A stretch of 64,000 bases of DNA from Histomonas meleagridis (Eukaryota > Parabasalia > Tritrichomonadida > Dientamoebidae). Numbering within the stretch: position 1 is the first letter of the stretch; each line of letters starts with the position of its first letter. Shown here piece by piece: positions 50-63,487 of the stretch. The notes below the pieces were generated by a model that was not told the origin of the DNA, ran no database searches, and worked only from the letters and a program-made list of their open reading frames with translations. The translations under genes were made by a program, and so were the position numbers. The stretch spans positions 62,001-126,000 of the forward strand of contig WSYJ01000147.1 of NCBI GenBank assembly GCA_020186115.1. Direction: 5' to 3'.

Positions 50-1165
50 ATGTTTTTTTGGAGAAGTTCAAACATACCTTATACAGAACCTATTGAGAAA
101 CTTTCACTCAACATGCTCAATCTTTTAAGTAATGACTCAGAAAATACTGTAGTCTCTCCTTATTCTGCATTTGCAACTTTGATAATGGTTTCATCCATTT
201 TCTCGGAACCTACTCGTAAGCAAATTCTTCACTCGCTTAATATGTCGGAAAGACATAGTGTTAATAATTTACTTACATCTCTTAAAAATTTGATGGAAAC
301 AATTGAACAAAAATCATCAGGAAGTATTGTAGAAGGTGCTAACTCGCTTTGGCCCAACAAAAAACAAGATGTTGACATGAAAGTTTATGAACCATTGGTC
401 AAATTTCTTAAAATCAATGTGACACCAGTTGAATTCCCACAACCTGGTTGTGACATCATCAATAGTTACGTTGCCAATCATACGCATGATCTTATCCAAA
501 ATATCATTACCACTGAAAATGTACCCGAATCTACCGAAAATGTAATTGTTAATGCAATTTACTTTAATGCCAAATGGAAACAACCATTCGATGATAAAAG
601 TACTAGTGATGAACAATTCACTCTTTTTGACGGTTCTAATGTCACCACGAAATTAATGTACAAAAGAGACAAATTTGAATATGGAGAAGATTCGGAAGCG
701 AAAGTGTTATCCATACCTTATGTCAATGACTTTTCGATGGTTGTTATTCTTCCAAATAATAATAACATTGATTCTTTCCGTGCATTAAAGCAATCTCTTC
801 TTAACGGTAAATATCAGGAATACATTAAATTGTTGGAAACACAAAATGTTACTGTTAAGTTCCCAAAGTTTGAACACAGATGGGGAACTCAATCATTACG
901 TAATATGTTGGAGCAAATTGGAATTAGAAATATCTTCGACTCAAAGCTTGAAGAGAAATACGTCGATGATGTATTGCAACAAGTCGTAATTATTGTTGAT
1001 GAAGAAAAAACTGAAGCTGCTGCTGTGACTGTCACTACTTTGAAACCAGCAACGTACTTAATCCCTATGAACCCAAAGACTTTCTATTGCGATCATCCAT
1101 TCTTCTATTTCTTAAGGCATAAGGATGGCACAATCTTATTCGCTGGTGAATATGTTCACCCATAA
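50..1165 (+). CDS. Serpin-family protease inhibitor
   Basis: Serpins trap target proteases through a mobile reactive-centre loop. The frame is open to the left edge, but the first ATG is at 50 and gives about 371 residues, the usual serpin length. It shows the N-terminal helix A/B block with NTVVSPYSAFATL, the NAIYFNAKWKQPF strand, the FPKFEHRW segment and the C-terminal DHPFFYFLRHKDGTILFAGEY motif. The hinge reads DEEKTEAAAVTVTT: small residues fill P12-P10, as in inhibitory serpins, but the usual Gly at P15 is Lys. By loop counting P1 falls near Ala-Thr-Tyr, so target specificity cannot be read with confidence. No clear signal peptide follows the ATG at 50. An upstream start outside the window cannot be excluded. 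Confidence 0.9.
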   Translation: MFFWRSSNIPYTEPIEKLSLNMLNLLSNDSENTVVSPYSAFATLIMVSSIFSEPTRKQILHSLNMSERHSVNNLLTSLKNLMETIEQKSSGSIVEGANSLWPNKKQDVDMKVYEPLVKFLKINVTPVEFPQPGCDIINSYVANHTHDLIQNIITTENVPESTENVIVNAIYFNAKWKQPFDDKSTSDEQFTLFDGSNVTTKLMYKRDKFEYGEDSEAKVLSIPYVNDFSMVVILPNNNNIDSFRALKQSLLNGKYQEYIKLLETQNVTVKFPKFEHRWGTQSLRNMLEQIGIRNIFDSKLEEKYVDDVLQQVVIIVDEEKTEAAAVTVTTLKPATYLIPMNPKTFYCDHPFFYFLRHKDGTILFAGEYVHP

Positions 1166-7544: not shown

Positions 7545-7564
7545 TTGACGTGTACGAGGAATAA
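7545..7564 (+). pseudogene. 3' tail of an enolase gene (last codons only)
   Basis: The sequence encodes an enolase-like terminus (Asp-Val-Tyr-Glu-Glu-stop, TAA at 7562-7564). The following 130 bp match, inverted, the sequence downstream of the enolase pseudogene stop at 19658. The rest of the gene is missing, so a duplication breakpoint lies near 7545. It is convergent with the ankyrin pseudogene, with 84 bp between the two stop codons. Confidence 0.6.
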
Positions 7565-7648
7565 AGACAAACGTTTTGATTAATGAGAAATTTTATGTTT
7601 ATGTAACATTTGAGTTGGCAAATGAAAACATTTTTTCGATACAGTGCT

Positions 7649-8802
7649 TTATTTAATGTCTTTGCGTTTGTTTTGAGTTGATAAAGTAAGTGCTGTTTCA
7701 AATAATTTAAATCTTTTCCAAATATTATTTTGAAATATTAAAATAATAAAATAAGTCCTAAATAAAATAAATAAATACCTTTAGCATTAATATCAATTAG
7801 ATTTTGCTCAAGAAGATATTTAACAAGTTCAATATTTCCCGAAGCTGAAGAAAATATTAAAATATATTTTGGAAATTGTGATTCAAGAAAATATTTAGTA
7901 AGAAATATATTCCCTATTTTTGCTGATTCATAAATAATATTATCATTAATTTTCATTCCATTTTTTAACAAAAATAAGAATATTTCATAGTTATGATATG
8001 AAATACATTCGATTCCTAATTCTTCAAAATTGTTAATTTCAATAATTTTTTTTTTTTCCCCCATAAAGATATTTAAAGATATCATTTTGATAAAATTTAA
8101 TTGCTGTTTTATATGCACTTTTAAAAGACGAATGATTTTGTTCACATAAATGAATAATTTCAATATTTTCACCTGCAATTGCATATTTTCCTGTATTTGT
8201 TACTTTTGCACCATTTTTCTATTTCATCATTTCGAATTATTTTTGCTATTTCATTTGGATTATGTTCTTCTTTAATTCACTTCTTATGAAGTTCCCAATT
8301 ATTCTTTGAAAATTTATCATAATTGTTATTGATTTTATTCATGCCGAATAAAGAATTTGCTTTACAAATTTCTTCTCTTGTCATGTAATGAGCAAAATAT
8401 GATACCTTTTTGTTTTGTAAAACTGTTTGTTAAATCAATTAAGTTCAATCATATTATAAAGAAGATAATATGATTCTTGTGTATTTAAATGAAAAAGAAA
8501 TTTTGCTAACAAGTCGCATATTTTGTATTTATTTTTGTCTTGATCTTCTAAAAAAGTTTTAACTTCATTTAAAAAATCCAGATATATATCAAAATCTTTA
8601 ATTCTTATAACAAAAGATGTGTATATCATCTCAATAATTATCATATTTGATGATAATGGGTAATTTTCATCGATTTTGTGCTTTATAAAATTTAATACTA
8701 GAGAAATATTTTCTTTGTTCAAACCAAATATTATTTGCTTAACTTTAAAGTTTCCAATACACCGTGATTATTTTGGTTTGATTTTTCTATTTTAGAAGAC
8801 AT
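7649..8802 (-). pseudogene. Ankyrin-repeat (DUF3447-type) protein pseudogene
   Basis: Reads from an ATG at 8802 (SSKIEKSNQNNHGVLETLKL) to a TAA at 7649. Recognisable parts are an alpha-helical N-terminal region (MNKENISLVLNFIKHKIDEN onward), KNNWELHKK and NPNEIAKIIRNDEIE blocks, and ankyrin units such as SASGNIELVKYLLEQ. Stops follow about 23 codons, frame changes occur around 8185-8435, and there is a one-base excess in an A run near 8050. The last ankyrin repeat is split by a 71-nt spacer (7698-7768). It is a shortened inverted paralogue of the ankyrin pseudogene at 17.9-19.6 kb, with a near-identical 3' end reading TQNKRKDIK-stop. Ankyrin arrays bind proteins; the specific partner is unknown. 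Confidence 0.75.
7698..7768 (-). repeat. 71-nt spacer between ankyrin repeats (copy 5)
   Basis: Exactly 71 nt separate the codons IYL of one ankyrin repeat from TAL of the next. Removing it joins the repeats in frame. It is clearly homologous to the four 71-nt spacers in the plus-strand paralogue, including the block TTTCAAAATAATATTTGG. Here the first dinucleotide is AT where the others have GT, and the last is GA. Confidence 0.85.
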
Positions 8803-17393: not shown

Positions 17394-17857
17394 TTTGGAG
17401 AATCCGCAAATTCAATGGGTTTCGGTTTTATTCAATATCACTTCACAATCGGCATTTCCCAAACTTTGATTACATGACCAAAAGGTTTTTATATATCAAT
17501 TTTAAATTTTCCATATACGAATAATAAGAGAAAAGAATTGATTTTAGCTAAGGTCTTACATGTTTTATGTATTTCTCGAATCAAGTTAACCAATAAATTT
17601 ATTTTTTCAATTGAATATTTTAACCGAATTCGAGTCTTTTTCTGTTACCTCATCCCAGTATTCAAAAAGTGGAGCATATTGTGAGAATAAACTTTTGAAA
17701 AAAATCGAGAAGTTGACAACCCCAAATTACAATTAAATGTTATGCCACCATCTTCATGTGCTGGATCAATTCACAAAGCGATCGTTCTGAAAAATAGCAG
17801 AAAAATATCTTGCTGAAAATATGGTTTTACTTAGACTTTACAGATAAATTAGAATAA
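17394..17857. other. Intergenic, no gene seen
   Basis: AT-rich spacer between the Raptor-like start and the first recognisable ankyrin pseudogene sequence. No coding or RNA feature was recognised. Confidence 0.4.
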
Positions 17858-19572
17858 CTTAAATGGGTGTTTAATTGCTTTCATTATCAGCAAGTTTTGT
17901 AAAGAATATCCAATATCTTATGATATCATTATATACCGAATGATATATACATCCTTTTTGATTGATAATAATGATTTTGATATATATTTGAGATTATTAC
18001 AGGAAATTGAAAAATTTGAAGTAAATAATAAAATCAGCACAAAAATAATAAATTTATTTTCTCAATTTCTACTTAAAGAAAACACACAAGAATCATTTTA
18101 TTTACTTAGTTACATGATTAAGTATAATTTACTTGAATCAAAATTCATCAAAAATACATTTAATCCATTTTTTGTTCATATTAATCAAGATAAATCAAAT
18201 GAATATGAATATTTATTTATTCAAGAAAATATTTCTTATGAAGAACTTTCGAAGAATGATTGGAAACTTCATAAGCAATTAATTAAAGAAGGAGTTAATC
18301 CAAAAGAAATTGCGAAAGTAATTCGAAATGATGAAATAGAAGAACTTCAAGAAATATCATCACAAAATGAATTCGATTTTAATCAAATAAGTCCAAAATC
18401 AATTTATGAAAGATGTTCATTTATTAGTAAGGAAAATGTTTCATTAATTGATTATGCAGCACTTTTTTCGTCAGTTAAATGTTTTAAATATTTACTTATG
18501 AATGGTGCAAGTGTAGAAAATACAGGTAAATACGCTGTTGCAGGTGGAAATGAAGAAATCGTTCATTTATGCGAACAAAATCATTCATCTTTTCAAAATG
18601 CATATGAAGCAGCAATTGAATTTCATCGAAATGATATCTTTAAATATCTTTAGGAAAATAAAATTGAAGATATTGATAAAATAAAAAAATTAGGAGAAAA
18701 ATGTGTTTCATATTTTAATTATGAAATTTTTACATATTTAGAAAAAGAATGAATGAAAATTAATGAAAATATCATTAATAAAGCAGCAAAAATTGGAAAT
18801 ATTTTTCTTGTAAAATATTTCCTTAAAAATAATCAAATTCCAGAAAATATTTTAGTTTTTGCTTCATTTTCAGGAAATATTGAACTTGTTACATACATTT
18901 TAAAGCAAAAAGGAATTGATATTAATGCTAAAAATATTTATTTGTTTTATTTGATATTTATTTTAATGATTTGATATTTTAAAATAATATTTGGAAGTTA
19001 TATAAAATATTTAAAACAGCACTTATGTATACATCTTCATATGGTCATATAGAAATCGTGAAATTACTTCTTGAACAAGAAGATATTGATGTTAATGCTA
19101 AAAATATTTATTTGTTTTATTTAGAATTTATTTTAATAATTTCTTATTTCAAAATAATATTTGAAAATTATTTAAATTATTTAGAACAGCACTTATTTAT
19201 TCATCTTGGAATGGTCACACAGAAATTGTTAAAATGCTTCTTGAACAAGAGGGAATTGATATTGATGCTGAAGATGTTTATTTGTTTTGTTTGATATATA
19301 TTTTAATAATTTGATATTTCAAAATAATATTTGAAAATTATTTAAATTATTTAATACAGCACTTATGTGGGCATCTGAAAAAGGTCATACAAAAATATTT
19401 AAATTACTTCTTAAGCAAGAAGGAATTGATATTAATGCTAAAGATATTTATATGTTTTATTTAGAATTTATTTTAATAATTTTATATTTCAAAATAATAT
19501 TTGGAAATTATTTAAATTATTTAAATCAGCACTTGATTTAGCAACTCAAAACAAACGCAAAGACATTAAATA
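17858..19572 (+). pseudogene. Ankyrin-repeat (DUF3447-type) protein pseudogene with 71-nt spacers
   Basis: Trichomonads carry large families of such ankyrin proteins of unknown role. Sequence upstream of the first in-frame ATG (17940) already aligns with the minus-strand paralogue (KEYPISYDIIIY), so the true 5' end is decayed. The helical N-terminal region is open from 17940 to an in-frame TAG at 18651. A TGA at 18750 also interrupts it, and the frame resumes on the far side of each stop. Ankyrin units follow (AAKIGNIFLVKYFLKNN, SGNIELVTYILKQKG, and three full 33-residue repeats). From 18944 on, each repeat boundary contains a 71-nt spacer. Excising the spacers restores an open frame ending TQNKRKDIK-stop at 19572. 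The two nonsense codons argue for a pseudogene. Confidence 0.75.
18944..19524 (+). repeat. Four 71-nt spacers in a 170-bp ankyrin-plus-spacer array
   Basis: Spacers occupy 18944-19014, 19114-19184, 19284-19354 and 19454-19524. Each is exactly 71 nt, and they are separated by exactly 99 nt (33 codons) of ankyrin sequence. All four begin GTTTT and end TTTAA or TTTAG. Removing each joins IYL or a close variant to TAL/SAL in frame. By eye, copies 2 and 4 differ at about 4 of 71 positions, while the ankyrin units 19015-19113 and 19355-19453 differ at about 20 of 99. No trichomonad branch/acceptor motif (ACTAACACACAG) is present. Confidence 0.9.
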
Positions 19573-19657
19573 AAGCACTGTATCTAATAAATGCTTTCAT
19601 TTGCCAACTCAAATATTACATAAACATAAAATTTCTCATCAATCAAAACGTTTATCT

Positions 19658-20240
19658 TTATTCCTCGAGAATATCGTGTTCCTTAAGATATTCGTAGAAT
19701 TTGAAGAAGATATTTGTACTTCTCAATACATTCTCCACATGCTGTAGATCCGGTATTAATTTGTTGTACACCAATACGGCAATATCAGCGATTTATGATT
19801 TAATACTATGTTTTGTTCGGCGTCAATTTCATGAGCTTCGCCGCATACATAACATCTGAGATAGTACAGATTTGGTTTACCTTAAGTAACAACGCGTTGC
19901 AATATTTTCCTTCGATTGTCTTTGGGTTTGATGTGTATAGGTCATCGCCGACGAGTTGCACCTTTTTGACGAGTGTTGCGTTGAGTTCTTTCCAATGTAT
20001 ATAGTCATTTTCATGAAGACCATCTTCGATTGAGACAATGCATGGGTGCTTCGCTATGAGGATAGCCCAATATTAGATCATTTCGTCGCCGACTTCTTGA
20101 CAACTATCTCCACTTCGCAGAGTTTAGTTTCTTCGTCAGAGAACTCAGACGCTGCGGATATCCTTAGATGGCGTCTTTGATCGCAAGACATGGCGTGAAG
20201 CCTCCTTCATCGCTGAGGTTCTTTGTGGAGGTGTCCATTT
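19658..20240 (-). pseudogene. Enolase pseudogene, C-terminal part
   Basis: Enolase converts 2-phosphoglycerate to phosphoenolpyruvate in glycolysis. Read on the minus strand from 20240, broken frames give NLSDEGGFTPCLAIKDAI (the DEGGFAP region), then CIVSIEDGLHENDYIHWKEL, VQLVGDDLYTSNPKTIEG and CNALLLKVNQICTISDV. A degenerate ADIAVLVYNK and the C-terminal EYLKEHDILEE-stop follow. Multiple stops and frame changes are present, and the GTGQIK/SHRSGE catalytic loop is lost. The ankyrin pseudogene converges on it with 85 bp between stops. The sequence is visibly less AT-rich than its neighbours, as expected for an ancestor that was a highly expressed gene. Confidence 0.75.
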
Positions 20241-37881: not shown

Positions 37882-38300
37882 ATTTTTAATAAATGTTCAC
37901 TGTTGATTAACAAATATATAAAAACCTACAAAAGAATTCATTAATACAAAAATTTTTGGAATTTATTTATTCACAATTTTATTCAAGACATGATGTCATC
38001 CATCGGTAAAATTTTTTTTTTTTATTAATTAGGTTCTAAAAATATAAACTCATACAATTTTATCATAATTTTTAGAACCGTTTATAAACATTCAATAACT
38101 TTTTGAACACAACATGTTGTTTGTCACGTGACGCAAGAAGTTGATTTAGTTAGTCAAATACTGATATAGACAGAAAACTTCACAAATATTTCATAACGTT
38201 ATTATTACAACAGAGTTCAATTTTTCCAACGTCATTTTTTCAATTTTTTTGTGATTTGAATTTCTCAAAAAGATGAAATAAGATAATTTCATTTTTATAT
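37882..38300. promoter_or_regulatory. Intergenic with initiator (TCATTTTT) of the M60-like gene
   Basis: TCATTTTT at 38289-38296 places the +1 A at 38291, 10 nt upstream of the M60-like ATG at 38301. The same eight bases serve Hsp70 and the SnoaL-like gene. The rest of the spacer is AT-rich with no gene. Confidence 0.55.
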
Positions 38301-41300
38301 ATGATTCTTAATTTATTGCTATATCTCATTAAAACAGAGAATATAGGGAGATCTGTATATGGAAGCCCTGGTATTGATGAAGTTAATCTTGATTTACATG
38401 ATGGATTCGAGATCCTAGAACGCAATTTAACTATACCAAATCGTACCCATATCAAAGAAGCTCATTTTACAAGTTCGGTTATTAATGATGACGACTATCC
38501 GTGGCCAGGACATCCATATAAAAATACATGTAATTGGACACTATTATCAAATGAAACAATTAATGTCAAAAATAAATATAAATCAGTAGATATGACACAA
38601 GAAGAATTATATTGGCATCCAGCAGGTGCAAAACAATTTTATACCACACAAGAAGAGATAGATCAGATGGAACGTGTTAAAGTTCGCCTTATTTTATCAC
38701 CAAAACGTTTACGCCATACAACTCCATTCTTTTTACCACCTGGCGAACTCATGACAATTGAAATTTCTGAAGAAACTGTTTCTAAAAACATTAGAATTGA
38801 TTATAATCAACATACAGAAAATATTTGGAAAGGAGGAAATGGTGAAGCAGTGTCTAAGAACCGTTTAAATGAACTTTTACTTGAGGGAATGAGACTTACA
38901 AAAACCAAATGCACAATGGGGACACCATATGGTGCCAACTTATATTTCCATATAAGTTCTGCTGAACCGATTGAAATTAATATCACTGGTGTAATCATTA
39001 ATCCATTTTTTGTTTATGGTGTTCATTCTGATACTGAATGGAATAATTCACTTTCATTATTCAAAGGTCCTGTCTTTAGTTTTTATACTGGTAATATTGA
39101 AATTGTTGGATATTCACCATCAATTAAAGATTCAGCACAACGAATTAACGATTGCGGAGAATGGTTACGTAGTGCATATCAAATTGGTCAAACATCAGCA
39201 TACGATTATGGGAACAATCCAAAATTTGGACGTTCAATTAATCCACCACAACTTACATCAGAAACATTTGTTCCAGCAGGTGCAGCAGTAGCTATAACTG
39301 GAGAAAATAATTGTTTCTTCCCAACAAGCACTATAAATACATTTCTGAAATTTTCATCATTAATGGGTAATCCATGGATGGTAGTACATGAAATGAATCA
39401 TCTTAGGCAAAATAATTGGGGAAGAGCATTGAATGGTTGGGGTGAAATTACTAATAATGTAATTAATTTAGTTATATATGCGCAAAGTAATGAAGCAAGT
39501 AAATCAAGAACTATTGATGGCGCAAGTGGTTGGCCTGGTTTTGCAAATTCATTCACTAATTTAAATAATAAGGATGCGAATGATTTACGCTTATATTCAA
39601 TAATGCTTCATTATTTCGGTATCGAAAAAATGAAACAATTTATTGATGATGATCAATACGTTCGTTATTATCCTAGAAATACTTATGGAATTGCAGGCTC
39701 TGAAATGCTTCGTGCCTCAAAAGTTTTCGGTAGAAATATGAGATATCATTATAATTGGGAAGGTGTTACTGATGAAAAACTAACTAATGCCACATTAAAA
39801 GAATTAGAGAAAATGAATCTTCCTGAATTTCATCCAGTTACTACTGCTTATGGCTCAGGTTTTCTTGTTAATGATACAACAGGATTTATTACACAAAGAC
39901 CATTTTATTTACCAAATATTAATCAAACAATTGATTTTATTGAAACAATGCATTCTATTAAAGAAGAACATTTTGGTGAATTTGAATATGTTAGTGCTGA
40001 ATTTGAAGAAAATAGAAAACGATTTTGGGTTGAAAAATCCAAAGGAAAATTCACAAGAATTCCATTTACTAATATCACTGATGTTGAAGAAGTAATTGTT
40101 TCATATAATGATACAACAACAGGTGAAATTACTCGATGCATTTGTCACTTTAAGGAAACTATTCATAGTATTTATGATTATCAATATTATGATCTACCAA
40201 ATGGTTTGAAGATTAAAGATGCATATAATTTAACAGTAGGTAGAGAAGCTGATGCAATAATACCATTATCAAATACAGACGTATCAATTCCAAAGAAATC
40301 TGATCTAAGTACTGTTGACGTTGTTAAGCTTAGAATTCGTCCACCTAAAAATGCTTCATATAGATTCGTATTAAAAGGTAATGGTCAATCACAAATTTAT
40401 ATTTCAAATGAAACTTTAACTTATAATCCAAACATTGATGTTGTATTAATGACTGAAAAAGCTGGTCAATGGTATGCGAATAATCCAAGTGATCCAATTT
40501 ATCTTGAAACTACACAAGTTTATAATATGGCATATGTTATGTACACTACAAATACAAAAACAAATGGTTGGATAAGTTACTTTGAAGGATCAAGTTCAAG
40601 TTTGAAAACAATGGATGCTTCATGGTATGTTACAGAAGAAATACCACCAGAAGATTTGTTTTATACACAATATATCCCACAGAAAGAAAAAATTTATGAA
40701 ATGGATCTTTATAATGATCTTTCATTTTTGAGTAATGATCAATCAAAATGGAATATTACTAAATATCCGATTGGATTTGTATTCACAGGAGTAACTACTT
40801 CAAATCAGGGAACTAAAAATGAAAAAACTACAACGGAACTTATTAACTCGGCTATAACTGATGATGACCCAACAACTGAATTTAGAACTAATTATTGGAA
40901 TGGCCAAATTCCTGATTTCCCACACATTTATGAAATAGATATGGGCGAAACAAATGAATTTGATTCAGTTTATTTAGCAGTATCACAGAACACAGGTTAC
41001 TTTGATGTTTATGGCTATTTAGAAATTAGTGTATCAAACACAGAAGAAAATTTAGAATCAGAATCTTCGATTGTTTGGGGAGGATACTATGAATCTTTAA
41101 ATCCTGCAATTTCAATAGGAGAAAAAACTAAAGGACGCTATCTCAGACTTAAATTCCATAATAATACTAAAACTTGGAAAGATGGCCATAAAGGACGTAC
41201 TTCGATTAGAGAAGTTAAAGTTGGATATCAGTTTTACACACAAAAGGTTATTCCAATCACAAACACTAAAGTTATAACTAAGTCATCGAAGTGGCTTGAA

Positions 41301-42287
41301 ACACGCGCAGGTCCTTATTATAATGGCAAAGCTTATATTGGTAAACCAGATGAAGAAATTATATATAAAATTCCAAGTGGCCAACGAGCGTTTGGTATTA
41401 TTGGGGATTATTATGAAGGCATTGGTTATGCAGATGTTTATTTGGATGGAAGTAAAATTGGAGAAATTCATCAATCAGTTACACCACAAATTGATTCACG
41501 AAAACTTAAATATTCGACACGTGCATATCGTTCAGTATTATTTTATCATTTACTTGACACTACATCAGAACATGAAGTTAAAGTTTATGTAACTCAAGGA
41601 AGTATTACAGTATCAGGTTTTCTTAAAGATGAAATTGTATACAATTATTTCACAGATCCAACGCGTTCATATATGTATACACTTGGAGATATTCATAAGC
41701 AAAAGGAATTTGTACCAGAAGATTCCGATCCGAATTATACATTTAGTTACGAACACCAACGATATTCAGTCCGAATTGAAATTGGAACAAATACGACGAA
41801 AGAAGCCAAATTTTATTATTCATATATTGATGATGTTAATCGTATTAATGAAATTAACGAAACAACGAAAGAATTTCAAGAAGACTTTCCAATTGATTTA
41901 TATTTATATGTTCAATATCAAAACAACGAAGTTGAACTAATTGAACACATCTTCACAGGAATGACATCGAACCACGTCGAATATGTCATTAACTACACAC
42001 CGCCACCAGAAGTTACAACAGAAGTACAATCTGAAGTTGCATCAAATGTTTCAGAGATAAACGAATCCGATATAATTAATGAAAATTCTGATACAATATT
42101 TAAAGACATTAACGATGATGATGGAGCTAACCAAGACGATAAAGGAAAAGACGGTTCTTTAAGTGGTGCTGCCATAGCTGGAATTGCAATTGCAGTTGTT
42201 GCTGCAATCGCAATTGCTATTGTTTCTGTTGTTGTCATAATGAGACGTAAAAAAAGTCAAATGGCACATAGTGAACCGACCACATGA
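38301..42287 (+). CDS. M60-like (enhancin-type) surface metallopeptidase with C-terminal membrane anchor
   Basis: M60-like peptidases are gluzincin proteases of mucosal microbes and parasites, thought to cut mucin-type glycoproteins. The 1328-residue product has an uncleaved or short N-terminal hydrophobic start (MILNLLLYLIK). Its M60 domain (about residues 105-480) contains the zinc motif HEMNH at 363-367 and the third ligand Glu at 382 in GWGE. A second beta-rich region follows, then an F5/8-type C (discoidin-like) domain around 830-975 (FPHIYEIDMGETNEFDSVYL, KGRYLRLKFHNNTKTW). The tail is Thr/Glu-rich, with a single helix (AAIAGIAIAVVAAIAIAIVS) and a short basic cytoplasmic end. Many N-glycosylation sites support a surface location. 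The gene is intact over nearly 4 kb. Confidence 0.88.
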   Translation: MILNLLLYLIKTENIGRSVYGSPGIDEVNLDLHDGFEILERNLTIPNRTHIKEAHFTSSVINDDDYPWPGHPYKNTCNWTLLSNETINVKNKYKSVDMTQEELYWHPAGAKQFYTTQEEIDQMERVKVRLILSPKRLRHTTPFFLPPGELMTIEISEETVSKNIRIDYNQHTENIWKGGNGEAVSKNRLNELLLEGMRLTKTKCTMGTPYGANLYFHISSAEPIEINITGVIINPFFVYGVHSDTEWNNSLSLFKGPVFSFYTGNIEIVGYSPSIKDSAQRINDCGEWLRSAYQIGQTSAYDYGNNPKFGRSINPPQLTSETFVPAGAAVAITGENNCFFPTSTINTFLKFSSLMGNPWMVVHEMNHLRQNNWGRALNGWGEITNNVINLVIYAQSNEASKSRTIDGASGWPGFANSFTNLNNKDANDLRLYSIMLHYFGIEKMKQFIDDDQYVRYYPRNTYGIAGSEMLRASKVFGRNMRYHYNWEGVTDEKLTNATLKELEKMNLPEFHPVTTAYGSGFLVNDTTGFITQRPFYLPNINQTIDFIETMHSIKEEHFGEFEYVSAEFEENRKRFWVEKSKGKFTRIPFTNITDVEEVIVSYNDTTTGEITRCICHFKETIHSIYDYQYYDLPNGLKIKDAYNLTVGREADAIIPLSNTDVSIPKKSDLSTVDVVKLRIRPPKNASYRFVLKGNGQSQIYISNETLTYNPNIDVVLMTEKAGQWYANNPSDPIYLETTQVYNMAYVMYTTNTKTNGWISYFEGSSSSLKTMDASWYVTEEIPPEDLFYTQYIPQKEKIYEMDLYNDLSFLSNDQSKWNITKYPIGFVFTGVTTSNQGTKNEKTTTELINSAITDDDPTTEFRTNYWNGQIPDFPHIYEIDMGETNEFDSVYLAVSQNTGYFDVYGYLEISVSNTEENLESESSIVWGGYYESLNPAISIGEKTKGRYLRLKFHNNTKTWKDGHKGRTSIREVKVGYQFYTQKVIPITNTKVITKSSKWLETRAGPYYNGKAYIGKPDEEIIYKIPSGQRAFGIIGDYYEGIGYADVYLDGSKIGEIHQSVTPQIDSRKLKYSTRAYRSVLFYHLLDTTSEHEVKVYVTQGSITVSGFLKDEIVYNYFTDPTRSYMYTLGDIHKQKEFVPEDSDPNYTFSYEHQRYSVRIEIGTNTTKEAKFYYSYIDDVNRINEINETTKEFQEDFPIDLYLYVQYQNNEVELIEHIFTGMTSNHVEYVINYTPPPEVTTEVQSEVASNVSEINESDIINENSDTIFKDINDDDGANQDDKGKDGSLSGAAIAGIAIAVVAAIAIAIVSVVVIMRRKKSQMAHSEPTT

Positions 42288-52239: not shown

Positions 52240-52436
52240 GGTACTCTCCAACCTAATGGGAGAATTTGAATACCTTCCTTTCAAAAAGTGGAAATGCCTT
52301 TCAATTATGCGTGATTTTTTGAATAGCATTGAAAAATTCCCATTCATAATATTTTTGTGAGAAAATATTCCTTCTCAAATTTGATTTCTATGTTCTACAT
52401 TTTTTTTTTTTTTTTTTTCTGAAAATTTATAAAATG
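52240..52436 (-). repeat. Left arm of an ~11-kb-spaced inverted repeat
   Basis: About 200 bp that match, in inverted orientation, 63288-63487. Shared blocks include GTAGAACATAGAAATC, GAGAAGGAATATTTTCTCAC and AATCACGCATAATTGAAAGG. Both arms keep an open frame reading NFSMLFKKSRIIERHFHFL followed by GRYSN. A long T run (about 52392-52412) interrupts the left arm. Confidence 0.8.
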
Positions 52437-55279
52437 TCACCAAATAGATTTTTACTTTGAACGGTCGCCACCAAAAAAATATTGCTTTGTTGATAAATCA
52501 GTACACATTCATAATTTTGATCTGTAAACCAAAAAACATATATAATAATTAATGCTTTTTGTTAAATATTAAAATATTCGAATTTTTTTTTATTATAGAT
52601 AATCATTTTCACTTAAAAATTAAATAGTTGAAAAATATCTTTATCACATTTATTAAAATTATATGATATATTAAAAGTTTCATTAATTTTGATTTATATT
52701 CAGTTAATATTGAGATTTATTCATTTTAAAATCAATTCTCAAGATTTTTATTCAAAAACAACATAAAGAATAATAAATAAACATGAATTAACTATAGCAT
52801 TCATTAATGAACATGAGTAGGTATATATACAAACACAAATGAATTTGAATTAACATAAGTAAACATGAAGAATCATGAGTGAATAAGCTACAAGATATAA
52901 TAGATCAAATGAAATAACAATATTATTTGAATTCATTTAAAGTAATTTTCGATTCAATACTGTATAAAGTTTATTCAAACTAAGTGTCCTTACTTTATTG
53001 TGAATAAATAGAATAATTAAAATCCCTCCTTACTATTATTCGAATGAAATACAACACGAAAAATCGCATGGTTTTAACATATATGAACATAATACAATAT
53101 GAGATAAAATATTTTGGAGAAATTGACATCGCTGATTTTGGTATTATAATTTCATGTAATAATATTCTATAAAATAAGTTATTCTATTGTAATAAAGAGA
53201 ATTAGGTATTTCAACATTTATTATTTGGCTGTGTTCATAAAAAACAAGATTTATTAATGACATTTGTATATAAAATTATAATTTTATTAGCTTATTTTAT
53301 TCCTTTAATCATTTATAATAATATTAACATGTTAATGAATATCTATAAAGCTCCATTTACGATTCCATAATCGTAAAAGACTAGTTTTTACAAACAATTT
53401 TGGTAATACTAAAATTTTCCTTGAGAAATAATATATTATTCCAAGATTATTTAAATATAAATATCATATAATAAGTATTATGCAAATCTCCTAGCTATTT
53501 TCTTTAATATATATCATCCGGCACATAAACACATATAACACTCATACCACATGCAAGGAGAAAACACATAATTAAAATGAATAAGCATAAATAAGCTTAA
53601 TTTAACAAGATAAAAAAAGAATGGAATATATTAATTTTTTGATAAGCATGAAATAGCATCATCAAATATAGAATAAAAATGAATAAAGTTGAGATAACAT
53701 AAAGAACTGGGGGGAAAAAAAGTTAACATAGGATAACATTAAAAAAACACTTAATATACATGTCCATTAACAAATATAACATAGCATGAATTAAATTAAT
53801 AAATGTGAGTATATATGATTTTTAAATATGAATATTATATTAATTTGTTTATTATAATAAATTATGACTTCTCTACCTTAATTTAGTCTCTCTCTTATGA
53901 TTTAAATAATGAAATTTTTTCAAATATTCTAAGTTATCTTGATCTATCAATGAACAAAATGTATAAATTTAATATAATTATATGAATTATTATGATACCT
54001 AACTTAAAAAAAAATTCTTTATATTATGCATAAGAAATAGTAGTAACTCGAAATGTAATAAAAGTAATTGTACTTAATGAATTTGAAATAAAATATATAA
54101 GAGAGCGTAGATTTCATTCATTATTATAGAGGGGAAACTATAAAAATATTTAGAAATGATTTTTTTCGGAAAATTATATTTATGCTACAATTATGAAAAA
54201 TTGTAAATTACAATTATTTTTCTGGATCAAGGTTCGTGAAATCACCTATAAAAAATCTTTAATAATGTTAAATTTCAATGGATATATATATATAAGTGAT
54301 TTATAATTACAAAGAAGACTTTTAAGATCTAAAATAAAAATGTTTTCATGTTGAACTATTTCAAGATTAATATACTGTTTATTAATGATTATTAATTATA
54401 ACTATGATTAAAAAATGAACTAATTGTAATCATATCAAAAAATGATCGATAAATTCATATTTCCCATAAAATCAATTAGCATTATGACAATAACTTTATA
54501 CACTTATTTTCTTGGTAACTTTAGAAATATTATAAGATATACATTCATGTACATATAAGACTCTGAATAAGTTGAATCCCCCGTGTTTTTTGGTAAGATT
54601 TTAAAAAAGATTATTATCAAATTAAAAATTATATCAATTTTTGTCATTAAAAATTATATATTTCATTAGATTTATATTTCAAAAAAATATTCTAACATTT
54701 TTTTAAAAATAGAATAGATTATTTCACTATTTTTTTCATACAAAAATGAAAAATTTACCAGATAAAATAATATTATCGCTCATAAATGAATGTGTGTAAT
54801 AATTAATTCTTCAAAAAAAATGTTCACTTTTTGAATAAATGTTTGGAATTAACTGCTTTTTACGCAGAATTTTCTGTATAAATATTGAATTATCATTCAA
54901 TAATTGAATGAACATCATTTTACCGAAAATTATTATATTTTTTTTCAAGATTGCAATATGTTTGGTTGGACAAAATTCGAGTGATTAAATATGTATACAT
55001 TACTAAACATGAGAAATGTGATTGAAATCTGAAATCAGAAAAATTTATAAATTTAATTATTCCTAAAAAATCCGATTTTTTTATGTTTATAATAATATTT
55101 TATCGAAGTTTTTAACATATGTCAAGTTTATTAATGAGCTATATTAATGAATTTATTTGATTTTTAAAAATTGATATGATTTTTTTGACATCAAATTAAT
55201 GTAAAAAATTAATAGGACTAAAGTGTATATAATACATTAAGGTTTACCACGATATAGGATTGATTAATGACGATCTTTT
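52437..55279. other. AT-rich island without genes
   Basis: About 2.8 kb of extremely AT-rich DNA with no credible coding frame. Degenerate repeats of AACATGAATAA and related words occur at about 52745-52885 and 53545-53790. Confidence 0.5.
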
Positions 55280-55830
55280 TCGAAAATTAAATTTTCAAAA
55301 TTTCGAAATTTGTAACAAAAAAATTTAAACAAAACAAAATCTAAACAATATAACAAGATATGTTATCAAATAAAGATAATATATACAGATTTTTAAAAAA
55401 TTAAATTTTCAAAATTTCGAAATTTGTAACAAAAAATTTAAACAAAACAAAATCTAAACAATATAACAAGATATGTTATCAAATAAAGATAATATATACA
55501 GATTTTTAAAAAAAAAAATTTACAAAATTTCGAAATTTTGTAACAAAAAAATTTAAACAAAACAAAAATCTAAACAATATAACAAGATATGTTATCAAAT
55601 AAAGATAATATATACAGATTTTTAAAAAATTAAATTTTCAAAATTTCGAAATTTGTAACAAAAAATTTAAACAAATCAATATTTAAATAATATAATAAAA
55701 TATGTCATCAAATAAAGATAATATATACATATTTTTCAAAAATTAAATTTTCGAAATTTCGAAATTTGTAACATAAATCTTCACAAATCGATATTTAAAT
55801 AACATAATAAAATATCATTTATATTTCTAT
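55280..55830 (+). repeat. Tandem array, five copies of a ~114-bp unit
   Basis: Units start near 55287, 55401, 55514, 55630 and 55742, with spacing of about 112-116 bp. Each contains AAATTTTCAAAATTTCGAAATTTGTAAC and ends with AGATAATATATACAGATTTTT or a variant, allowing for small indels. The first four copies are close to identical; the fifth is diverged. The array lies just upstream of the 3' end of the Merlin-type transposase. Confidence 0.85.
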
Positions 55831-63287: not shown

Positions 63288-63487
63288 GGCAATTTATAAA
63301 TTTTCAGAAATTTTTATGTCAAAAAATGTAGAACATAGAAATCGAATTTGAGAAGGAATATTTTCTCACAAAAATATTTTGAATGAAAATTTTTCAATGC
63401 TATTCAAAAAATCACGCATAATTGAAAGGCATTTCCACTTTTTGAGAGGAAGGTATTCAAATTTTCCCTTTTGCTTGGAGAGTACCT
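63288..63487 (+). repeat. Right arm of the ~11-kb-spaced inverted repeat
   Basis: Inverted match to 52240-52436, including GTAGAACATAGAAATC, the TTCTCACAAAAATATT block and the open frame NFSMLFKKSRIIERHFHFL. Outside the arm the frame continues about 50 more codons (ending near 63627) but diverges completely from the left arm. Confidence 0.8.

What the first reader, a model, noticed from the sequence alone, without database searches (positions are those of the whole stretch)
18944..19524. Phase-locked 71-nt spacers between ankyrin repeats, more conserved than the repeats
Seen: four spacers of exactly 71 nt alternate with exactly 99 nt of ankyrin sequence (170-bp period). A fifth 71-nt copy sits at the same codon position in the inverted paralogue (7698-7768). 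Each shifts the frame, and each, if removed, joins IYL to TAL in frame. Spacer copies 2 and 4 are about 94% alike by eye while the 99-nt ankyrin units are about 80% alike. Four copies start GT but only one ends AG, and the known trichomonad intron acceptor motif is absent. Possibilities: an unusual intron copied along with each repeat, a self-removing or tolerated RNA element, or an AT-rich insertion amplified by tandem duplication in a dying gene. The host gene also has two nonsense codons, which favours the last option for this copy but not necessarily for the family.
Basis: partly seen in the sequence, partly recalled or inferred. Interest (0 to 1): 0.75.

Follow-up and report, generated by a model that had tools for sequence, protein, structure and literature searches.

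The report
Intron-like spacer in every ankyrin repeat
A poultry parasite carries about two thousand near-identical 68-base inserts, one before each unit of a large and diverse family of ankyrin repeats, and the pattern of selection suggests the cell removes them as a strange kind of intron that lacks the normal splice signals.

Summary
The spacer array is real, but its frame must be redrawn: the coding unit is 102 nt (34 aa) and the insert 68 nt, not 99/71. The three bases before TAL are a translated codon (1128 exact-flank genomic copies: 105 TAT/TAC, 0 TAA/TAG).

It is not confined to two pseudogenes. The genome (43.3 Mb, inferred Histomonas meleagridis) holds at least 1128 exact-flank copies, roughly 1800-2800 by extrapolation, mostly 68 nt. 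Spacer-free junctions of this type are nearly absent (1 against 424). A second, unnamed trichomonad has the same insert at the same place.

Ankyrin units after the inserts are under protein-level selection (framework stop changes 2 against 30 expected) with three hypervariable codons; the inserts show no coding constraint (stops 33 against 33.0 and 28 against 22.8). They are probably removed from RNA. They lack the trichomonad acceptor motif seen in a real intron of this genome, any in-frame GT-AG solution and any detectable fold.

Best reading: a non-canonical intron in every repeat of a diversified ankyrin repertoire. No RNA evidence was available; removal is inferred. The window's own copy is a dead gene. 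"More conserved than the repeats" reflects the hypervariable codons.

The parts
17853..18653 (+). First open piece of the host gene (266 aa stop to stop; DUF3447 match), ended by a nonsense codon at 18651-18653
18654..18752 (+). Second piece of the same frame, ended by a nonsense codon at 18750-18752
18753..18944 (+). Third piece: spacer-free ankyrin sequence (64 aa) up to the first insert
18945..19012 (+). Insert copy 1 (68 nt; register positions 2-69)
19013..19114 (+). Ankyrin unit 1 (102 nt, 34 aa, no stop in its frame)
19115..19182 (+). Insert copy 2 (68 nt)
19183..19284 (+). Ankyrin unit 2 (102 nt)
19285..19352 (+). Insert copy 3 (68 nt; like copy 1 it has stops in both the upstream and the downstream frame)
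19353..19454 (+). Ankyrin unit 3 (102 nt)
19455..19522 (+). Insert copy 4 (68 nt)
19523..19573 (+). C-terminal cap, 16 aa ending in a stop; similar 16-aa caps in the inverted copy and in L031
7700..7767 (-). Insert of the inverted, also broken, paralogue (one copy)
7649..7699 (-). C-terminal cap of the inverted paralogue with its stop

Best explanation
The spacer is a 68-nt intron-like element sitting between codon 34 of one ankyrin repeat (Leu of ...KDIYL) and codon 1 of the next (hypervariable residue before TAL). The two were multiplied together as a 170-bp unit through dozens of arrays in a trichomonad, most likely Histomonas meleagridis. In intact genes it is removed from the RNA, so repeats join as contiguous 34-aa ankyrins whose codons 1, 6 and 9 are diversified like a binding surface. 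Its signals are not those of ordinary trichomonad introns, so removal uses either a spliceosome with relaxed recognition of the GTTTTATTT start and the 3' half (TATTTCAAAATAATATTTGGAAATTATTTAAATTATTT), or a separate route. Shown: position, length, abundance, coding selection on the units, lack of coding constraint on the insert, presence in a second species. Inferred: removal at RNA level, exact cut sites, machinery, expression of the family, and the binding role.
For: (1) Position and length fixed: 192 of 218 full-length hits exactly in register; 1128, 940 and 424 genome-wide pattern matches with 0 in the backward controls. (2) Units after inserts are translated: 1 of 197 has a stop in the ankyrin frame against 188 and 197 of 197 in the other two frames; framework changes syn 115 obs/127.8 exp, nonsyn 255/443, nonsense 2/29.8; codon 70-72 has 0 TAA/TAG against 105 TAT/TAC in 1128. 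(3) Inserts are not translated: stop changes 33 obs/33.0 exp in the downstream frame and 28/22.8 in the upstream frame (the rates come from the inserts themselves, so the split between classes, not the total, is the test); 19 of 160 have stops blocking both paths. (4) The length is 2 mod 3, so without removal nothing beyond the first insert could be read as ankyrin. (5) Spacer-free junctions nearly absent: 1 match at 0-30 nt against 424. (6) Intact 5' frames of 389-461 aa up to the first insert in 9 of 25 locus-strand groups. (7) The same insert at the same junction in a second species: P0004, found through the N-terminal domain alone, reads into it; more. (8) A 34-aa unit is an ankyrin with one extra residue.
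Against: No transcript was seen. The element lacks GTATGT and the ACTAACACAYAG or TCTAAC..AACAG motifs; no GT...AG pair gives the required length; the nearest AG (position 76) would leave 94-nt exons and delete the codon shown to be translated. The element does not fold better than shuffled sequence and its ends pair less. The published genome paper reports 573-638 predicted introns and at most one per gene (PMC8529796, passages). Among 27 nearest-neighbour pairs synonymous framework differences were also low (2 against 12.8 expected), so present selection could not be separated there from homogenisation. About a tenth of copies are an in-frame 153-bp type lacking the 5' 17 nt (109 against 940); how these are handled is unclear, and several distinct ones also carry stops. 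Codon 10-12 of the insert has no stop in the downstream frame (0 of 112), which a pure intron does not predict. G1 is lost in some first and last copies.
Confidence: 0.6

Rival explanations
1. Silent cassettes: the arrays are not translated as such but serve as donors (gene conversion) for expressed ankyrin genes, which keeps their coding parts clean.
For: Strong homogenisation (framework third-position diversity 0.047; few synonymous differences between nearest neighbours); 16 of 25 locus-strand groups have no long intact Met-started frame to the first insert, though some are cut by locus ends or have other N-termini.
Against: Spacer-free recipient copies with these exact junctions were not found; codon 70-72, which lies at the insert junction, avoids stops; 9 of 25 groups have intact 5' frames.
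Confidence: 0.14
2. Programmed ribosome bypass: the insert stays in the mRNA and ribosomes skip it, as in phage T4 gene 60 or Magnusiomyces mitochondria.
For: Would explain the absence of splice signals; 2 mod 3 inserts that must be skipped; low-complexity flanking repeats TATTT. PMC5009743 (passages) says perfectly matched codons are absent in several of the yeast cases.
Against: Take-off codon TTG/CTG and the codon before resumption (TTT) do not match, and where the first is CTG the second does not follow (columns -1 and 67); no fold beyond shuffles; up to 39 hits in one locus (L049) would need near-perfect efficiency; no nuclear case appeared in the passages read.
Confidence: 0.1
3. Decaying satellite: a coding repeat with an AT-rich insert spread recently by tandem and segmental duplication and is now a non-functional repeat; clean frames only reflect youth.
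For: The window copy and the inverted copy are broken; array L049 shows 1-nt length changes in units and inserts, some perhaps long-read errors; the nearest-neighbour test was inconclusive.
Against: Nonsense changes in unit framework 2 against 29.8 expected at the insert's own rate, nonsynonymous 255 against 443, synonymous about as expected; amino-acid-like hypervariable codons; the insert is shared with a species about 43-51% identical at the N-terminal domain.
Confidence: 0.1
4. -1 frameshifting: the insert is translated, the ribosome shifting once per insert into the downstream frame (giving a 57-aa repeat); or the in-frame 153-bp type is the functional form.
For: In-frame copies exist in both species with a similar peptide (...YFNN.IFQNNIW..F.LF.TAL); no stops at codon 10-12 in the downstream frame (0 of 112).
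Against: Stop changes in the downstream frame occur as often as neutral (33 against 33.0); 19 of 160 inserts offer no path at all; of 11 second-species ORFs with in-frame inserts read by eye, 6 end inside an insert (contig ends not separable, P0161 ambiguous).
Confidence: 0.05

Closest known systems
Trichomonad spliceosomal introns, types A and B (T. vaginalis, T. stableri; PMC12316389, passages seen)
   Same: Short, AT-rich, inside coding sequence; GTTTTA at positions 1-6 fits the degenerate type-B 5' motif GTWYWD; 68 nt lies in the type-A length range (56-196).
   Different: No CTAAC branch motif, no in-frame AG end; many per gene; near-identical sequence in most copies. A canonical intron exists in this genome: L051 has GTATGT...ACTAACACATAG between two halves of an Aa_trans transporter gene. 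Short type-B-like strings were found too but no more often than the backward control (4 against 5), so they are not evidence.
Nonconventional introns of euglenids and diplonemids (PMC4770533 and PMC6221363: start of abstract in listing; PMC12621601: passages)
   Same: Non-canonical ends, short direct repeat at the two borders (TATTT), coexistence with canonical introns, unknown machinery.
   Different: No end-to-end base pairing; one multiplied family; another lineage (Metamonada).
Translational bypass elements (T4 gene 60, Magnusiomyces mitochondria; PMC5009743, passages)
   Same: Frame-disrupting non-coding blocks inside functional genes; 81 in the yeast mitochondrial genome.
   Different: No matched codons, no fold beyond shuffles, nuclear genome, far more copies.
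Diversified ankyrin or LRR repertoires (DARPins; recalled: lamprey VLR cassettes)
   Same: Constant repeat framework with a few hypervariable codons; a natural unit matches DARPin repeats by sequence.
   Different: Natural, protist, with an intron-like insert between repeats; binding not tested.

Membership tests
Canonical trichomonad spliceosomal intron | 5' GYAYGY or GTWYWD | tested here: inconclusive
   GTTTTA fits GTWYWD only (motifs); positions 1 and 2 are G and T in 185 of 190 each but G is lost in some first and last copies
Canonical trichomonad spliceosomal intron | Fused branch and 3' motif RCTAACACAYAG or TCTAAC..AACAG ending at the exon | tested here: not met
   Absent from the consensus of 190 copies; AG at position 76 is out of frame and lies after the translated codon; the motif is present in a real intron of the same genome
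Canonical trichomonad spliceosomal intron | Removed in mature RNA | not testable with these tools
   No transcript data; no contiguous array of this family among the 120 listed of 6237 protein hits
Intron in general | Untranslated sequence interrupting a selected reading frame | tested here: met
   (units selected, insert without coding constraint in both frames); nearest-neighbour version inconclusive
Euglenid/diplonemid nonconventional intron | Non-GT-AG borders with short direct repeats | tested here: met
   No frame-keeping GT-AG choice; TATTT at -4..0 and 65..69
Euglenid/diplonemid nonconventional intron | Intron ends brought together by RNA secondary structure | tested here: not met
   60 of 122 distinct copies: mean MFE z -0.11 against dinucleotide shuffles; expected pairs between first and last 15 nt 1.14, shuffled 2.29. 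RNAalifold also gave no pairs, but so did its shuffled control, so that test has no power
Ribosome bypass element | Matching take-off and landing codons | tested here: not met
   TTG/CTG against TTT, no covariation
Self-splicing intron | Conserved catalytic fold of a known ribozyme family | tested here: not met
   68 nt, no folding beyond shuffles; no Rfam match up to E 1 in window 18850-19650

The most novel reading that the evidence does not exclude
A parabasalid removes thousands of copies of a single 68-nt element, up to several tens per gene, by a route that does not use the canonical trichomonad splice signals. This would be a new class of intron outside Euglenozoa, or a nuclear ribosome-skipping element, built into a DARPin-like repertoire of hypervariable ankyrin modules in which every exon is a phase-symmetric single repeat and can therefore be shuffled or skipped freely.
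Probability: 0.4. Interest if true: 0.9.

Novelty: new variant of a known kind. Interest (0 to 1): 0.74.

Why it matters
If these are introns, the parasite would have several times more introns than annotated (about 1800-2800 copies by extrapolation, against 573-638 with at most one per gene in PMC8529796), and the rule that trichomonad splicing needs an extended fused branch/acceptor motif would fail. It would also expose a hypervariable ankyrin repertoire built of single-repeat exons. One long-read RNA experiment would decide between splicing, bypass and silent cassettes.

Tried and rejected
Rejected: 71-nt length and 99-nt unit (codon 70-72 translated). GT(1)-AG(76) intron (frame and stop avoidance). 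Translation through the insert in either frame. Hairpin joining the ends or a known ribozyme. Spacer as more conserved than coding framework. Restriction to two pseudogenes.

Led nowhere: strict T. vaginalis motif pair, 0 matches at 10-40 nt spacing. RCTAACACAYAG: 58 matches, control 17; many sit at about 825-bp spacing on C9 and C84, and the C9 copies whose upstream was in view (L055, L056) have no 5' motif; L051 is a real intron; L052 and L054 gave no match on the strand read. Short type-B pattern: 4 matches against 5 in the control. Contiguous-ankyrin query: at most 57% identity among the 120 listed of 6237. Viral contigs gave no relative. Genome contigs gave one misbinned trichomonad contig without the insert (L063). 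RNAalifold and its shuffled control both gave 0.0, so no power. Paper searches showed no title or abstract start describing this element; most texts were not read. Nearest-neighbour selection test inconclusive. A claim that C at position -1 marks a synonymous Leu was dropped because CTG ends come mostly from L049 (37 of 255 copies end ATCTG; L049 sequences).

Dropped before counts: 37 of 255 hits not full length; 33 of 230 inter-insert intervals not 102 nt; 95 of 255 inserts not 68 nt with a TTTG flank; 7 of 34 unit codons and, in the insert, 5 variable positions for the rates and 4 codons per frame. One search's pattern does not cover gaps between that and its own lower bound. P0005 was not viewed.

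Full report
What was checked. The window lies at C83:62001-126000 of a 43.28-Mb, 121-contig genome. It carries IBP39 and IBD genes typical of trichomonads. The organism is therefore inferred, not stated, to be H. meleagridis (Parabasalia, Dientamoebidae). The 170-bp array, the four plus-strand copies, the fifth inverted copy and the two nonsense codons are as described.

Redrawing the unit. Positions 70-72 behave as a codon: in 253 copies they read AAT, GAA, AAA, CAA, GAT, TAT, AGA, CGA, TGG and rarer sense codons, never a stop. Genome-wide, with exact flanks on both sides, there are 1128 copies, 105 with TAT/TAC and none with TAA/TAG, although for first bases A, G and C together NAA is commoner than NAT (121 against 84; for A alone it is 43 against 62). 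So the coding unit is 102 nt (34 aa), which aligns to DARPin repeats with one extra residue, and the insert is 68 nt. It lies between Leu of KDIYL and the residue before TAL if placed in phase 0; because the borders share TATTT, cut sites a few bases upstream are also possible.

Abundance. In 20 fetched loci plus the window a spacer profile gives 255 hits; of 218 full-length ones 192 have the standard length. Three genome-wide patterns give 424, 940 and 1128 matches with 0 in the backward controls; scaled by their frequency in the fetched loci they suggest roughly 1800-2800 copies. The same flanks with 0-30 nt between them occur once, and not as a clean junction. Rarer length classes exist: 48, 54, 59, 62, 69, 70 and 71 nt, and a 153-bp unit lacking the first 17 nt (109 against 940).

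Selection. Of 230 intervals between inserts, 197 are 102 nt; 1 of 197 has a stop in the ankyrin frame, against 188 and 197 in the other frames. Codons 1, 6 and 9 are hypervariable (W/Y/F/K/E/N/R and others). Most of the rest is nearly fixed, even at synonymous sites, so the arrays are recent or homogenised. Using the insert's own substitution rates as the neutral scale, framework codons of 152 distinct units show synonymous changes 115 observed/127.8 expected, nonsynonymous 255/443 and nonsense 2/29.8. In 112 distinct inserts stop changes are 33/33.0 in the downstream frame and 28/22.8 in the upstream frame; the insert's totals match by construction, so only the split between classes is informative there. 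The coding parts are kept; the inserts are not read. In a smaller test on 27 nearest-neighbour pairs synonymous framework differences were also too few (2/12.8), so that test cannot separate present selection from homogenisation.

What this implies. Because 68 is 2 mod 3 and the inserts are untranslated, ankyrin units beyond the first insert can be selected only if inserts are removed or skipped, or if the units act elsewhere. Nine of 25 locus-strand groups have an intact 389-461-aa Met-started frame up to the first insert. The window's gene and its inverted copy are broken and say nothing about function.

Is it a known intron type? Ordinary trichomonad introns have GYAYGY or GTWYWD at the start and a fused CTAAC...AG motif at the end (PMC12316389, passages). 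Such an intron is present in this genome: in L051, GTATGT...ACTAACACATAG separates two halves of an Aa_trans transporter (profile 8-272 before, 272-409 after). The ankyrin insert has GTTTTA at its start but no branch motif and no AG that keeps the frame. It folds no better than shuffled sequence and its ends pair less than in shuffles (60 of 122 distinct copies), and Rfam has no match. It shares direct repeats at the borders and non-canonical ends with euglenozoan nonconventional introns, but not their end-to-end pairing (PMC12621601, passages). It works like an intron; it is not shown to belong to any named intron class.

Second species. Ten N-terminal homologues 43-51% identical come from unnamed ENA contigs (P0002-P0011). 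Of the nine viewed, eight end at or just after the same junction and P0009 ends before it; P0004, found through the N-terminal domain alone, reads into a recognisable insert. Further ORFs show in-frame copies with the peptide YFNN.IFQNNIW.FFKLF before TAL. Histomonas has the same in-frame form, with stops in some copies. In divergent Histomonas copies TGGAAA and TATTT of the 3' half are kept best and GTTTTATTT less (16 copies at 70-80% identity: 0.84, 0.80, 0.65). Whether the out-of-frame form arose by turning a coding insert into an intron, or the in-frame form by loss of the 5' end, is open.

Confidence. Intron-like removal at RNA level 0.6; silent cassettes 0.14; bypass 0.1; decaying satellite 0.1; frameshift or in-frame form 0.05. 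RNA data would settle it.

Noticed in passing
fetched loci L031-L050; window 19013-19454: Ankyrin codons 1, 6 and 9 are hypervariable in an otherwise almost fixed repeat, like a natural DARPin library; this repertoire may be as interesting as the insert.
   Followed up: partly
window 7555-8629 and 17940-19667: The two ankyrin genes lie in inverted copies of one segment (arms 71-90% complementary, about 9-12 kb apart); both are broken.
   Followed up: partly
window 55276-55777: 113-bp tandem repeat, 4.4 copies, 93% matches.
   Followed up: no
window 52240-52405 and 63321-63486: 166-nt inverted repeat, 95% complementary.
   Followed up: no
window 38277-42287: 1336-aa frame with Peptidase M60 and F5/8-type C domain matches.
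   Followed up: no
C9:2517-24247 and C84:1707642-1717696 of the genome: ACTAACACATAG recurs, often at about 825-bp spacing, in an AT-rich repeat; the two C9 copies with upstream in view have no 5' splice motif. It would inflate motif-based intron counts.
   Followed up: partly
L063 (CALUSQ010000040.1): A contig binned as a Gastranaerophilales bacterium encodes a trichomonad-like DUF3447-ankyrin protein (P0002, 100% over residues 1-254) and a second long frame that looks like a transposase by eye: probably a misbinned protist contig.
   Followed up: no
L049: Array of 39 inserts with 1-nt length changes in homopolymers of inserts and units; real decay or long-read assembly error.
   Followed up: partly
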